Shown piece by piece: positions 30,580-33,722 of a stretch of 64,000 nucleotides of DNA. The position numbers were made by a program, and so were the translations under genes. This stretch comes from Oscillospiraceae bacterium (GTDB lineage: Bacteria > Bacillota > Clostridia > Oscillospirales > Acutalibacteraceae), in assembly GCA_902792905.1 (NCBI GenBank), contig CADBBH010000008.1:1-64000 (forward strand), given 5' to 3'. The notes under the pieces were generated by a model that was given only the letters and a program-made list of their open reading frames with translations, did not search any database and was not told where the DNA came from. The stretch's first letter is position 1. Every line of letters begins with the position of its first letter.

Positions 30580-31446
30580 ATGGCAGAAATTGTAGGAATC
30601 CGTTTCAAGGATATAGGCAAGGTCTATTATTTCGACCCCGACGGCGCGGTATTCGCAAAGGGCGACCACGCGATAGTCGAAACAGTCAGGGGAATCGAAT
30701 GCGGCGAGGTCGCTATCGAAAACAAGGATGTCAGCGACAGCGAGATAGTTAAACCGCTCAAAAAGATAATCAGACCCGCGAGCGAAAGCGACATCAAGAC
30801 CTATCAGGAAAATAAAAAGAAAGAGATTGAAGCGGAGGAAATCTGCAGGAAAAAAATCGAGGCGCACGGCCTCGAGATGAATCTCGTTGATGTCGAATAT
30901 ACCTTTGACAGGGGCAAGATTATATTCTATTTCACCGCCGACGGCAGAGTGGATTTCCGAGAGCTTGTCAAAGACCTGGCCGGCGTTTTCAGGACCAGAA
31001 TCGAGCTTCGCCAGATAGGCGTGCGCGATGAGGCGAAGATGATAGGCGGCCTGGGTATATGCGGCAGACCGTTCTGCTGCAGCAGCTTCCTCGGAAACTT
31101 CCAGACCGTTTCAATCAAGATGGCAAAGGAGCAGGGACTCTCGCTGAATCCCGGCAAGATAAGCGGCGCCTGCGGCAGACTTATGTGCTGCCTCAAATAT
31201 GAGCAGGAGGCATACGACCATCTGCTTGAAATCACCCCGAAGCCCGGCGCGATAGTCAGAACTGCCGACGGCAAAGGCACCGTAACCGAGATTTCTCTGC
31301 TTACCGGCAAAATCAAGGTGCTGCTCGACAGCAATCCGAACGGAATCCCGAAGACATACGGCAGAAAAGATGTCAAGGTCATAAAAGACGCTCAGATAAA
31401 GGTTGACAAGACCGAGCTCGACGCGCTCAAGGATATCGAAGGATGA
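30580..31446 (+). CDS. ricT: PSP1-domain protein RicT (YaaT)
   Basis: 288 residues. The PSP1 domain carries the Cys motifs GICGRPFCCSSFLGNF and GACGRLMCCLKYEQEAY, which bind Fe-S clusters in the Ric complex (RicT/A/F). In Bacillus that complex promotes RNA maturation by RNase Y and affects sporulation. Whether ricA/ricF homologues exist here is unknown. AGGAG precedes the ATG and the gene follows holB by two bases, the conserved arrangement. Confidence 0.95.
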   Translation: MAEIVGIRFKDIGKVYYFDPDGAVFAKGDHAIVETVRGIECGEVAIENKDVSDSEIVKPLKKIIRPASESDIKTYQENKKKEIEAEEICRKKIEAHGLEMNLVDVEYTFDRGKIIFYFTADGRVDFRELVKDLAGVFRTRIELRQIGVRDEAKMIGGLGICGRPFCCSSFLGNFQTVSIKMAKEQGLSLNPGKISGACGRLMCCLKYEQEAYDHLLEITPKPGAIVRTADGKGTVTEISLLTGKIKVLLDSNPNGIPKTYGRKDVKVIKDAQIKVDKTELDALKDIEG

Positions 31447-32144
31447 CGGTTTACAATCCCGGCAATATCGTGAACTGCCGCGACCTCGGCGGATATGATT
31501 GCCCGCGCGGAATTACGGCCCCCGGACGGGCGTTGCGATGCGGAATTCCGAAAAACCCCGCGCCTTCCGATATTGAAATGCTGAAAAATCTCGGCATAAA
31601 AACAATATTTGATTTGAGAGGCAAAAATGAGGCGGCCGAAGCGCCGTCTTATTTTGAATCGGATGCGGATTTCGTTTATTATAATATTCCGCTGCTTGAA
31701 GCGAATCCCTCGCTCAATGATACGCGCCTGCCGATATGGAAAATGTACGCGATGTCGCTCGACGGCTTCAGAGACGGCTACCGCGAGCTCTTCACGCTCA
31801 TCGGCGAATGCGATTCCCCGTTTCTTTATCACTGCTTTCTCGGCAAGGACAGGACCGGTATCGTCACCGCTCTCCTGCTCGGGGCGGCGGGAGTCGGCAG
31901 AGAAGCGATAATCGCCGATTACTGCCTCTCATACAAATATCTGAGACCGTTTATCGAAAAAGAAATAGCGGATAACACGGGACTTATCTGGGAACAGGAT
32001 GTTTCCCGCCTCGAGTCACGGCGCGAATACATTGAGGATACGCTTAAATACATTGACTGCGAATACGGCGGAACAAACGGCTTTCTGCTGTCAGCCGGAC
32101 TTACCGAAAGCCTGATTGAAAAAGCGGTTGACCGCTTGTTTTAA
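31443..32144 (+). CDS. Tyrosine-protein phosphatase (DSP/PTP-like)
   Basis: 233 residues, cytoplasmic. The N-terminus has NCRDLGGYDCPRG, typical of the Y_phosphatase3 family (dual-specificity and lipid phosphatases). The P-loop is HCFLGKDRTGIVTALLLGAAG (Cys-x5-Arg) and FDLRGKNEAAEAP is the family Arg/Asp region. It overlaps ricT by four bases and is the last gene of the plus-strand run. The substrate may be phosphotyrosine or a phospholipid or inositol phosphate. Confidence 0.9.
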   Translation: MTVYNPGNIVNCRDLGGYDCPRGITAPGRALRCGIPKNPAPSDIEMLKNLGIKTIFDLRGKNEAAEAPSYFESDADFVYYNIPLLEANPSLNDTRLPIWKMYAMSLDGFRDGYRELFTLIGECDSPFLYHCFLGKDRTGIVTALLLGAAGVGREAIIADYCLSYKYLRPFIEKEIADNTGLIWEQDVSRLESRREYIEDTLKYIDCEYGGTNGFLLSAGLTESLIEKAVDRLF

Positions 32145-32155
32145 GTGAATAATAT

Positions 32156-32190
32156 AACGCTCACAAGGATTTCTCCCTGTGAGCGTTTTT
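32156..32190 (+). terminator. Terminator closing the glg-to-phosphatase run
   Basis: AACGCTCACA (32156-32165) pairs with TGTGAGCGTT (32178-32187), followed by a T-run. Strong rho-independent form. Confidence 0.9.
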
Positions 32191-32204: not shown

Positions 32205-32224
32205 CTCGCACAGCGAATTTAGCT
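32205..32224. repeat. 20-bp flanking copy of the hairpin-array unit
   Basis: Identical, base for base and in the same orientation, to 32719-32738 on the other side of the four-helix-bundle gene. Its AATTTAGC part contains the stop codon of that gene. Confidence 0.85.
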
Positions 32225-32563
32225 TTCTTTATTGTTCTTCACCGTGTTTATTGAAGAAATCAACATACGGCGGATTGCACCGCAATTATTATTTAATGAC
32301 TTATAGCGTGTATCCGAAAGATAACCGGTTCTGTTAAGTAATTCAAGCCAATACTCCGATTCATAGCACTCTTTCAAAGCAATCTGCATTTTTGAAACAA
32401 AATCAGCTGTGCTGTGAGCATATTTAGACTCATGAATATTTGCTCCGATTGAAGTTCCCGATCGGATCAATTGATTTGTCATAACACTTTCGCGCTTTTC
32501 TTTCTTGATTAAGTTGCAGATTTCAACTATTTCAACGGCAAAATCTTTGGCTTTTTCAAGCAT
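32219..32563 (-). CDS. Four-helix-bundle protein (23S rRNA intervening-sequence family)
   Basis: 114 residues, the family's normal size. Core motif NQLIRSGTSIGANIHESKYAHS, helix 1 KAKDFAVEIVEICNLI and helix 4 (ESEYWLELLNRTG). The family is found in rRNA intervening sequences, is structurally similar to the Avd protein of diversity-generating retroelements, and probably binds nucleic acid. The strongest ribosome site (GGAGGAG) is about 21 bases before the ATG, oddly far. The stop codon lies inside a repeat unit that also occurs beyond the gene's 5' end, so gene and array appear to form one cassette. No reverse transcriptase is near. Confidence 0.88.
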   Translation of the reverse strand: MLEKAKDFAVEIVEICNLIKKEKRESVMTNQLIRSGTSIGANIHESKYAHSTADFVSKMQIALKECYESEYWLELLNRTGYLSDTRYKSLNNNCGAIRRMLISSINTVKNNKES

Positions 32564-32600
32564 TATACTTTCTGAAATAACAATCTCCTCCGATTATTGT

Positions 32601-32807
32601 TGTCGGCTAAATTGCCGATTGCATCGGCAGCTAAATTGTTCGTGTTTCTCACAGCTAAATTGCTCGCTTTCGCTCGCAGCTAAATTAAATTCGCATTTAC
32701 CGTAATAATTACCATCAGCTCGCACAGCGAATTTAGCTGCGCTTGCGCAATTTAGCTCGCCACAGGCGAATTTAGCTTGTGAAGCAAATTTAGCTGACCG
32801 AAGGTCA
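32601..32807. repeat. Hairpin array with AATTTAGC/GCTAAATT motif, inverted halves
   Basis: Four GCTAAATT copies start at 32606, 32630, 32654 and 32679. Four inverted AATTTAGC copies start at 32730, 32749, 32769 and 32787. Between them lie short, mutually different stem-loops: TGCCGA/TCGGCA, TCGC/GCGA, TGCGC/GCGCA, TCGCC/GGCGA and GACC/GGTC. The halves face each other, so the whole could fold into a long compound hairpin. The last unit contains the stop codon of the lipoprotein gene at 32805. Confidence 0.85.
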
Positions 32808-33722
32808 AACTATCTCTTTCGGAGCATCCGGATCCGTTCTGTCAATCGAGTATCTGACCGAATCGCGGTAGCAGAGCTGAACGGGAACATTGCCGATGCT
32901 CTCGAGCTTGCCCACACCCGTTACCGAAGTTTTGACATTGATATTCTTGATATATTCTATCGATGTGATTTCGTCGGTTTCAATATCCGCCCTGATGATA
33001 ATCTGACAGTTATCATAGACAAGCGTCGGCTTATCGACTGTCATATACTGATTTGCTTCTTCAAAGCCCTTCATTACCTCGTCGACGTTGCCCATATCAT
33101 ACGCCTTTTCAAGCGTTTCGGGCAGCGCGGGGCTCTTGAGGGTAACCGTAATTGTTCTCTCGCTGTCGCGGTCAACGCAGGTAGCGCTCTCCACATCTTC
33201 GAGTGTGAGCCTGCTGACAAAATCCTCACCCTTTACGGGCAGGAAACCCTTGAGGTCGCCGCCGTATTCAACCTCGGCCCCGTCCTCATTGAGCATATAA
33301 TCCTTGAGGGAGTCTATCGCGATATTGACATAGTCGTTTTCGCTGTAGGGAAGGCGCTCGGTCTCCTCGGTTTCATTGCCGTTTTCGTCTTTGACTGTTT
33401 TCGTCTCTTCGATACGGTTAATGCTCTTGTCCCTGCTCATATTTACGCTCGCCTTGATATCCTTGAGTTCGTTGATATGAACATTGAAATATTCAAATAT
33501 CGTGGCGGTGTTCTCTTTGAGCTTTTCGGGAGTGTACTGCGTATCGGTCACGACGCTGCTGTTTTCGTCGAGTGAGGTCGTGATATCGGTCGGCAGAGGA
33601 GTCTTCGCCTTTATTGTGGTTGTGGTCTCCCCTTCATTGCCCGTGAAATCGCAGCCCGCAAGGCAGAAAAGCATGGCTAAGGCCAGCATAAAGGAAACAG
33701 CGCAGATAACAGTCTTTTTCAC
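32805..33722 (-). CDS. Lipoprotein, unknown function
   Basis: 305 residues with a clear lipobox (LFCLAGC). A Thr-rich linker leads to an acidic alpha/beta region with VNMSRDKSINRIEETKTVKDENGN. No family is recognised. It follows the M28 peptidase by 36 bp and is the last gene of the prfB operon. Its stop codon is inside the hairpin array. Confidence 0.75.
   Translation of the reverse strand: MKKTVICAVSFMLALAMLFCLAGCDFTGNEGETTTTIKAKTPLPTDITTSLDENSSVVTDTQYTPEKLKENTATIFEYFNVHINELKDIKASVNMSRDKSINRIEETKTVKDENGNETEETERLPYSENDYVNIAIDSLKDYMLNEDGAEVEYGGDLKGFLPVKGEDFVSRLTLEDVESATCVDRDSERTITVTLKSPALPETLEKAYDMGNVDEVMKGFEEANQYMTVDKPTLVYDNCQIIIRADIETDEITSIEYIKNINVKTSVTGVGKLESIGNVPVQLCYRDSVRYSIDRTDPDAPKEIV

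What the first reader, a model, noticed from the sequence alone, without database searches (positions are those of the whole stretch)
32205..32807. Four-helix-bundle gene inside a compound hairpin array: possible new mobile or RNA-level cassette
Eight AATTTAGC/GCTAAATT copies join short hairpins of unrelated stem sequence, with constant linkers and variable stems. The halves are inverted. One exact 20-bp unit lies on each side of the gene, which encodes an IVP/Avd-like nucleic-acid-binding protein. Stop codons of the gene and of the neighbouring lipoprotein fall inside units, so the insertion may have set those ends. Conserved linker plus variable stem suggests selection for stem pairing rather than sequence.
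Basis: partly seen in the sequence, partly recalled or inferred. Interest (0 to 1): 0.75.

Follow-up and report, generated by a model that had tools for sequence, protein, structure and literature searches.

The report
Mobile hairpin array carrying IVP gene
A small bacterial gene best known from insertions inside ribosomal RNA genes sits here in a jumping DNA element built of repeated short words and hairpins, which lands at the ends of genes such as tRNA genes, so a 30-year-old guess about this protein can now be tested.

Summary
Nine AATTTAGC/GCTAAATT copies join unlike hairpins in two inverted halves beside a four-helix-bundle (IVP) gene, with an exact 20-bp unit on each side. It is a mobile element. 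In congener G208 the same site has only the left half and one copy of the unit; a second element has a clean empty site, inserted in the T-tract of a tRNA terminator. In family relatives such arrays lie 5' of IVP genes; 42 of 82 IVP loci have a tRNA or tmRNA gene just upstream. Some IVP genes are coupled to varied cargo genes. Half arrays match the orphan Gut-1 RNA (RF01706). Genera rich in Gut-1 hits nearly always carry IVP (37 of 38, against 26 of 97); RVT_1 and Y1_Tnp show no such link. In the wider phylum and three other phyla IVP genes lie between inverted arrays of mostly 7-nt repeats (25 of 29 loci). Stems show compensatory changes; linkers show no nested pairing, so they look like repeated binding sites. 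Best reading: IVP acts on these arrays in a transposition-like process aimed at stem-loops. Enzyme, intermediate and IVP binding are inferred.

The parts
32719..32807 (-). Left half array (IVP orientation): hairpins TGACC/GGTCA, TTGC/GCAA-like, CGCC/GGCG, GCGC/GCGC, CGC/GCG, joined by the linker AGCTAAATT; present alone in congener G208
32719..32738 (-). 20-bp unit, upstream copy (AGCTAAATTCGCTGTGCGAG in IVP orientation): last linker and hairpin of the left half
32683..32718 (-). Centre: contains GCGAATTT, complementary to linker plus hairpin arm of the left half; in Gut-1 type relatives the corresponding helix shows compensatory changes
32602..32686 (-). Right half array: linker words at 32679-32686, 32654-32661, 32630-32637 and 32606-32613, with three hairpins between them
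32579..32601 (-). Short gap with the Shine-Dalgarno-like GGAGGAG before the IVP reading frame
32219..32563 (-). IVP / four-helix-bundle gene (PF05635, TIGR02436); several homologues start 5 codons further upstream, where this copy has ATT at 32576-32578 instead of ATG
32205..32224 (-). 20-bp unit, downstream copy (target duplication); holds the IVP stop codon
32225..32718 (-). 494-bp segment absent from congener G208, which has a single copy of the 20-bp unit here
32805..33722 (-). Host lipoprotein-like gene (no Pfam match) whose stop codon lies in the first hairpin of the left half
31443..32144 (+). Host Y_phosphatase3-family gene, convergent flank, with a terminator-like inverted repeat at 32156-32187

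Best explanation
The feature is a small mobile element whose hallmark gene is the IVP four-helix-bundle protein. Its ends are inverted arrays of a 7-8-nt word; in the window's family the words are mostly separated by hairpins, in other bacteria they are plain tandem repeats (mostly heptamers) on both sides of the gene. It inserts at the 3' base of a stem-loop, typically the T-tract of a terminator, or, as in this window, at the last hairpin unit of an older left-half array, duplicating the target (T5-6, or one 20-bp unit). SHOWN: site differences between sister species that fit insertion, target preference, array grammar, compensatory stem changes, association of array number with IVP. INFERRED: the IVP (a pentamer in a solved relative) binds the repeated words in single-stranded DNA or RNA, folds or synapses two arrays, and recruits host replication/repair enzymes that copy or strand-transfer the element into another stem-loop. 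Solo arrays would be moved in trans, and the Shine-Dalgarno-bearing 3' end of many IVP genes lets the element carry coupled cargo genes.
For: Window site: G208 (flanking proteins 78% and 90% identical) has the left half only and one 20-bp unit; the window has 494 more bp flanked by the exact repeat. G145 vs G219 (next gene 96% identical): 666 vs 109 nt after tRNA-Gly; the host terminator is present in both and the element sits in its T-tract. Homology between elements in unlike contexts typically starts near the terminator/tRNA end and stops at the IVP stop codon. 42 of 82 IVP loci have a same-strand tRNA/tmRNA gene ending 120-420 nt upstream of the IVP start, 15 kinds, and 17 of 27 scorable Gut-1 loci have one within 120 nt; ten other upstream genes are RumA-type methyltransferase 6, GuaA 2, UDG 1, SerRS 1. 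Array statistic 56 of 87 vs 32 of 870 control windows. Left-half words recur inverted in the remainder: 2.50 copies vs 0.41 for other elements' words. Genera with five or more Gut-1 hits carrying IVP: 37 of 38 vs 26 of 97; after subtracting two Gut-1 hits per IVP gene 23 of 24 vs 40 of 111. Inverted repeat arrays around IVP genes elsewhere: 25 of 29; best period 7 in 48 of 58 flanks vs 10 of 62 control flanks.
Against: No recombinase, nuclease or reverse transcriptase is encoded, and RVT_1 and Y1_Tnp show no association, so the enzyme is unknown. No binding data exist. 20 of 97 IVP genomes have no Gut-1 hit and 13 of 90 Gut-1 genomes have no IVP hit; IVP-negative G088 and G183 hold 11 and 9 Gut-1 hits, though MAGs are incomplete. 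25 of 30 fetched Gut-1 loci hold no IVP gene. G226, which lacks any array, also differs at the 3' ends of both flanking genes, so its empty state may be a later replacement. Precise loss in G208 by recombination between the 20-bp repeats is not excluded. The window arrays fold weakly and its IVP start codon looks degenerate.
Confidence: 0.7

Rival explanations
1. The arrays are moved by an unknown enzyme in trans (for example a tyrosine or serine recombinase, or a group II intron type RT), and the IVP is only a passenger or regulator.
For: Targets (tRNA 3' ends, tmRNA, guaA, rumA) are classic integrase sites (recalled); stem-loop/T-tract targeting resembles group IIC introns (recalled); direct repeats of array halves flank some insertions.
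Against: RVT_1 and Y1_Tnp are not associated with array-rich genomes, whereas IVP is (OR 101 with one genome per genus). Integrases were not tested.
Confidence: 0.2
2. Gut-1/array is a non-coding RNA gene, or a transcription insulator, with cis function, and IVP neighbours are secondary.
For: Conserved hairpins with compensatory changes; Gut-1 was published among RNAs most likely expressed as non-coding RNAs (PMC2864571, passages); most fetched Gut-1 loci have no IVP gene (25 of 30).
Against: Arrays often sit just downstream of terminators, are inverted-repeat halves, vary in stem sequence, occur at unrelated loci and are unoccupied in sister species.
Confidence: 0.07
3. Integron-like gene cassettes with the array as a folded recombination site.
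For: Single coupled cargo genes of varied families after IVP, cargo shared between different array types, tandem units, a conserved ca 55-nt 3' end in 11 loci.
Against: The array lies 5' of the genes, a promoter-like site is carried by about half, units are scattered over genomes instead of one platform, and 22 of 91 IVP genes have no same-strand ORF close by. attC and IntI were not searched for.
Confidence: 0.15
4. Replication slippage and snap-back errors build hairpin repeats at terminators without any mobility function; IVP presence is coincidence of lineage.
For: Some hairpins 5' of the arrays look like inverted copies of the host gene end, including an 18-nt copy of a tRNA 3' end in L012 (by eye).
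Against: Clean gene-containing insertion differences; similar second-layout elements follow three different tRNAs in G168, G049 and G010 (by eye); IVP association holds with one genome per genus.
Confidence: 0.05

Closest known systems
23S rRNA intervening sequences (IVS) with S23/IVP ORF
   Same: Same protein family; inverted repeats around the gene; tandem heptamers upstream of the ORF are reported for the IVS described in PMC4990558 (passages read); that paper calls IVS parasitic/selfish and reports an older hypothesis that the ORF serves mobility
   Different: Window element is intergenic, not in rRNA; repeats are hairpin-spaced; both halves lie 5' of the gene; target is a stem-loop; cargo genes occur in relatives
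Gut-1 RNA (Rfam RF01706)
   Same: Half arrays with the linker TGAAAT match the model; in L068 the left half on + and the right half on -
   Different: Published as a non-coding RNA found only in environmental sequences, 'Human gut only' (PMC2864571, passages); here it is half of an inverted repeat of a mobile element. The window array itself does not reach the Gut-1 cut-off
Heptanucleotide repeats (cyanobacterial STRR, recalled; TAACTGA repeats of Beggiatoaceae)
   Same: 7-nt tandem repeats in intergenic regions with strain-specific copy number; PMC4679880 suggests that a repeat-binding protein might be the mobile part (passages and section 10)
   Different: That paper's main text has 0 mentions of S23, 'intervening' or 'helix bundle'; here heptamers frame IVP genes
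REPIN/RAYT (recalled)
   Same: Many short hairpin elements without a gene plus fewer copies with a gene, apparently depending on a protein supplied in trans
   Different: Y1_Tnp is not associated
Group IIC introns (recalled)
   Same: Insertion just after intrinsic terminator stem-loops
   Different: No reverse transcriptase association; no intron family among Rfam matches of 18 loci; element ends with a reading frame

Membership tests
IVP / four helix bundle protein (PF05635, TIGR02436) | Profile match above curated cut-off | tested here: met
   97.0 bits vs 33.8; 109.8 vs 24
IVP / four helix bundle protein (PF05635, TIGR02436) | Homopentamer of four-helix bundles | not testable with these tools
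   Nearest solved relative 2rld, five chains in one entry, E 1.2e-31; no oligomer test made
23S rRNA IVS | Lies inside an rRNA gene | tested here: not met
   Window copy lies between two protein genes; some relatives (e.g. L284, L288) show 23S-like flanks by eye
23S rRNA IVS | Gene framed by inverted repeats | tested here: inconclusive
   Met in 25 of 29 loci outside the hairpin type; in the window both halves lie 5' of the gene
Gut-1 RNA RF01706 | Covariance model score at or above gathering | tested here: not met
   No match in the window locus L001; met in L068 and in 71 of 200 family genomes
REPIN/RAYT | Y1-type RAYT transposase in the genomes that carry the repeats | tested here: not met
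   No PF01797 hit in G000; OR 1.69, p 0.18 for array-rich genera
Group II intron / retroelement | Reverse transcriptase in cis or associated | tested here: not met
   No PF00078 hit in G000 (84% complete); OR 0.83 for array-rich genera
Integron gene cassettes | attC site 3' of the gene and IntI integrase | not tested
   Array lies 5' of the gene; IntI and attC not searched
DGR Avd | Reverse transcriptase and template/variable repeats beside the gene | tested here: not met
   No RVT_1 hit in G000; template/variable repeats not searched; Avd and IVP are homologous (PMC10053308, passage), so the profile match alone does not decide

The most novel reading that the evidence does not exclude
IVP proteins define a widespread class of mobile elements, across at least four bacterial phyla, that transpose without an encoded nuclease or polymerase: a repeat-binding four-helix-bundle pentamer recognises arrays of short words and drives insertion into stem-loops with host enzymes. 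rRNA IVSs, heptamer repeats, Gut-1 'RNA' and the cargo cassettes of gut Clostridia would all be forms of this one system.
Probability: 0.35. Interest if true: 0.93.

Novelty: new variant of a known kind. Interest (0 to 1): 0.8.

Why it matters
IVP/S23 proteins have had no known function since rRNA intervening sequences were described. This gives them a habitat outside rRNA, a candidate DNA partner (short repeat arrays), unoccupied sites to compare and a genome-level dependence, so the published idea that the ORF serves mobility becomes directly testable. It also reassigns an orphan Rfam 'RNA' (Gut-1), offers a candidate protein for unexplained heptamer repeats, and describes small cargo cassettes that land at terminators in gut bacteria.

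Tried and rejected
Nested left/right linker pairing as one long stem ladder: tested and not supported; the parse in that call is noisy, and some rows (e.g. L015, L045, L062, L095) are not real linkers. RT or HUH transposase as the moving enzyme: no association. The hairpin 5' of the array as element-borne or as an inverted copy of the host: revised after one search showed that it is the native terminator at one site; for gene-end cases the origin of the 3' arm is unresolved. A first hairpin-chain detector was far too permissive and was used for no count. A first control set for flank repeats was polluted by arrays themselves (only 9 of 29 passed its 99% line) and was replaced by shuffles. IVP as a defence or phage family: no PADLOC or PHROG match for the window protein. 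Deletion between the repeats in G208 was kept open.

Literature: the searches listed no paper that I could see linking IVP genes with intergenic repeat arrays or Gut-1. Only open-licence PMC was searched; most listed papers were seen as listings only. Passages were read in PMC4990558, PMC4679880 (plus section 10), PMC2864571, PMC5524665, PMC10910872, PMC10053308 and PMC11637426.

Rows dropped before counts: no family tblastn hit was weaker than 1e-15 (0 of 92); the second HSP of L063 was left out but is counted; loci too short upstream: 5, 6, 9; of 37 loci, five had no ORF hit and three of the hairpin type were left out; 3 of 30 Gut-1 loci at contig edges; 7 of 30 Gut-1 loci left out of alignment A1. 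Pfam was run in full on 20 of 30 cargo ORFs picked by hand, and on 10 of 16 upstream ORFs.

Full report
WHAT IS THERE. On the minus strand the window reads: lipoprotein-like gene, left half array (hairpins joined by AGCTAAATT), a centre, a right half array (the same word inverted, AATTTAGCT, between other hairpins), Shine-Dalgarno, IVP gene, and a second copy of one 20-bp unit, followed by a terminator-like repeat and a convergent phosphatase gene. All nine AATTTAGC words of the 64-kb window are here, against 3.1 expected. Elsewhere in the held genome the paired pattern occurs once more, in a half array with no IVP gene, on contig C19. The IVP gene is single-copy in this genome, an 84%-complete MAG. 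Its closest relatives in the named collection are Clostridia/Oscillospiraceae/Ruminococcus MAGs, many from ruminant guts (best 80 of 96 confirmed loci kept).

THE SAME ARCHITECTURE IN RELATIVES. 97 of 200 genomes of the family carry an IVP homologue, up to 15 each. Upstream of many of these genes lies the same grammar: about four hairpins joined by one word, a centre, then about three hairpins joined by the inverted word, then the gene (by eye). A word that occurs at least twice and then at least twice inverted (score 5 or more) is found in 56 of 87 IVP upstream regions and in 32 of 870 control windows from the same loci. The word differs between elements (GCTAAA, GTTATA, GTGATA, TGAAAT, GTGAAG, ATGATG, CGATAT and others), yet a word derived from the left part alone recurs inverted 2.50 times in the remainder, against 0.41 for other elements' words and 0.10 for its own direct copies; 5 of 52 have no inverted copy. 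A sigma-70-like promoter scoring 10 or more of 13 lies between array and start codon in 44 of 85 elements, against 9.9% of shuffles and 5 of 85 stretches inside the array, so in many elements the array need not be part of the IVP mRNA. A second layout (e.g. L040, L043-L045, L096) has pyrimidine/purine tandem repeats in place of hairpins (by eye).

IT MOVES. At the window's own locus three congeners differ. The window has left half, centre, right half and IVP. G208 (flanking proteins 78% and 90% identical) has the left half only and a single copy of the 20-bp unit. G226 (98% identical on both sides) has no array. Window and G208 align on both sides of the unit (97% over 141 nt, 94% over 158 nt), so 494 bp plus one 20-bp copy make the difference, and the IVP stop codon falls in the duplicated unit. 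G226 also differs at the 3' ends of both flanking genes, so its state may reflect a wider replacement; precise loss in G208 is possible too. A second, cleaner case is the element of L009 (G145). In G219, whose next gene is 96% identical, tRNA-Gly is followed by its terminator and, 109 nt after the tRNA, by the response-regulator gene. In G145 the distance is 666 nt, the terminator is present, the element begins right after the terminator's T-tract, and a T-tract is present again at its right end. In the 70 longest pairwise alignments listed, homology of elements in unlike contexts typically runs from about -270/-300 to about +317/+345 around the IVP start, that is to the IVP stop codon; longer ones share cargo, a tRNA flank or the host gene.

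WHERE IT LANDS. 42 of 82 IVP loci have a same-strand tRNA or tmRNA gene ending 120-420 nt upstream of the IVP start, of 15 kinds; 17 of 27 scorable Gut-1 loci have one within 120 nt. Ten further upstream genes were identified by Pfam: RumA-type methyltransferase PF05958 (6), GMP synthase C-terminal domain (2), uracil-DNA glycosylase (1), seryl-tRNA synthetase (1).

GUT-1. The Rfam family Gut-1 (RF01706), published as a likely non-coding RNA found only in environmental sequences (PMC2864571, passages), matches both halves of such an array on opposite strands in L068, 59.9 and 50.9 bits against a cut-off of 50. Of the 30 loci fetched, 5 hold an IVP gene in the fetched stretch and 25 do not. The window array itself is not a Gut-1 match, but the window genome has two Gut-1 hits elsewhere; the one examined lies about 170 nt 3' of a tRNA-Tyr gene and precedes a promoter-like site and a lipoprotein-like gene.

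IVP AND ARRAYS GO TOGETHER. Genomes with five or more Gut-1 hits carry IVP in 56 of 58 cases, the others in 41 of 142. With one genome per genus it is 37 of 38 against 26 of 97. Because each IVP element can bring its own array, I subtracted two Gut-1 hits per IVP gene; genera with an excess of five or more still carry IVP in 23 of 24 cases against 40 of 111. RVT_1 (OR 0.83, p 0.69) and Y1_Tnp (OR 1.69, p 0.18) show no such link. Six sister pairs within a genus differ in both traits, five in the same direction and one opposite. Against: G088 and G183 have 11 and 9 Gut-1 hits and no IVP hit; 20 IVP genomes have no Gut-1 hit. No other candidate family was tested.

OUTSIDE THE FAMILY. PF05635 is found in 29 of 149 genomes of the phylum, in 26 above cut-off. 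In 29 IVP loci from that phylum and from plasmids of Cyanobacteria (2), Bacteroidota (1) and Spirochaetota (1), the upstream flank is complementary to the downstream flank at p 0.05 or less against 200 shuffles in 25; 7-nt periodicity passes the same line upstream in 22 and downstream in 26; the best period among 5-12 is 7 in 48 of 58 flanks, against 10 of 62 control flanks. Two loci use 11-nt units (L287, L289). By eye some sit in 23S rRNA genes (classic IVS) and two in what looks like the RNase P RNA gene (L290, L292). The same theme is in print for one IVS (three tandem heptamers before the S23 ORF, PMC4990558, passages), and the idea that the ORF serves mobility is cited there; a heptamer-binding protein as the mobile part is proposed in PMC4679880 (passages and section 10). 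My searches listed no paper that joins these (open-licence PMC only).

STRUCTURE TEST. On 23 Gut-1 type arrays hairpin 1 is 100% paired with both-side changes at 5 of 6 pairs. The helix between linker 1 plus arm and the centre is 98% paired with both-side changes at 6 of 11 pairs; partners slid by one column fall to 49-67%. The two helices share columns and are mutually exclusive, which suggests a switch. Left and right linkers do not covary by nesting level (5.60 vs 5.64 of 7 in 59 variable elements, perm p 0.88; noisy parse). The simplest reading is that linkers are repeated recognition sites and hairpins are structural spacers. As single-stranded DNA the left half of L119 with its terminator folds far better than shuffles (z -7.9); the window's two stretches do not (z -0.30, -1.49).

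CARGO. In 91 IVP genes a same-strand ORF of 60 aa or more starts overlapping the stop or within 4 nt of it in 23, within 5-60 nt in 19, further in 27, and is absent in 22 (mechanical ORF calls). Fifteen start exactly at ATGA with AGGAG or AGGA inside the IVP 3' end. Of 20 cargo proteins scanned in full, 11 have a Pfam match at 1e-3 (GNAT twice, methyltransferase, nucleotidyltransferase, deaminase, NUDIX, two pyrophosphatases, three P-loop proteins; two of the 11 are below the curated cut-off) and 9 have none. Cargo is shared between unlike elements (L065/L073, L019/L034, L091/L093). A conserved ca 55-nt 3' end is found in 11 distinct loci, the weakest at E 0.03. The window copy has no same-strand cargo.

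MECHANISM. Shown: site differences that fit insertion, target, grammar, stem covariation, association. Inferred: IVP binds the words, joins arrays and uses host enzymes. The direct repeat of a half array, or of a whole array plus gene end, on both sides of IVP in L053, L082 and L089 suggests that resident half arrays serve as preferred targets, as in the window. The moving enzyme, the nucleic-acid intermediate and any host benefit are unknown.

Noticed in passing
window 32576-32578: Where several homologues of the IVP gene have their ATG (MAESI..), this copy has ATT after a good Shine-Dalgarno; the gene may start at a rare codon or five codons later.
   Followed up: no
L310 (G000:C13:26000-28500): In the window's own genome a Gut-1 type array lies about 170 nt 3' of tRNA-Tyr and precedes a promoter-like site and a lipoprotein-like gene without IVP.
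   Followed up: partly
L189 and L190 (MT835815.1, MT835590.1): Two unannotated, UNVERIFIED gut phage records carry an IVP gene with a hairpin array upstream; they may be bacterial DNA or point to phage carriage.
   Followed up: no
L065 ca +683 to +735 after the IVP start, L073, L031 downstream: A second hairpin-array family with the word TATATCATC/GATGATATAC occurs near cassettes.
   Followed up: no
L290, L292: IVP gene with heptamer arrays apparently inside the RNase P RNA gene, by eye.
   Followed up: no
L012, 5' of the array: After a tRNA-Ser terminator the last ca 18 nt of the tRNA gene recur inverted, giving a long palindrome.
   Followed up: no
L319 (G063:C43): Three array units in near-identical tandem of ca 290 bp after tRNA-Leu, with a shared downstream tail; the third is cut short.
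   Followed up: no
L314-L318 (G174): Near-identical left-half arrays (word GTGATAT) at several sites, partly nested in one another: solo halves seem to multiply.
   Followed up: partly
L287, L289: IVP genes framed by 11-nt rather than 7-nt repeats.
   Followed up: no
L313 (G226:C268), intergenic region around 1905-2107 of the contig: The convergent 3' ends of both flanking genes differ from the window although the proteins are 98% identical, suggesting local replacement.
   Followed up: no
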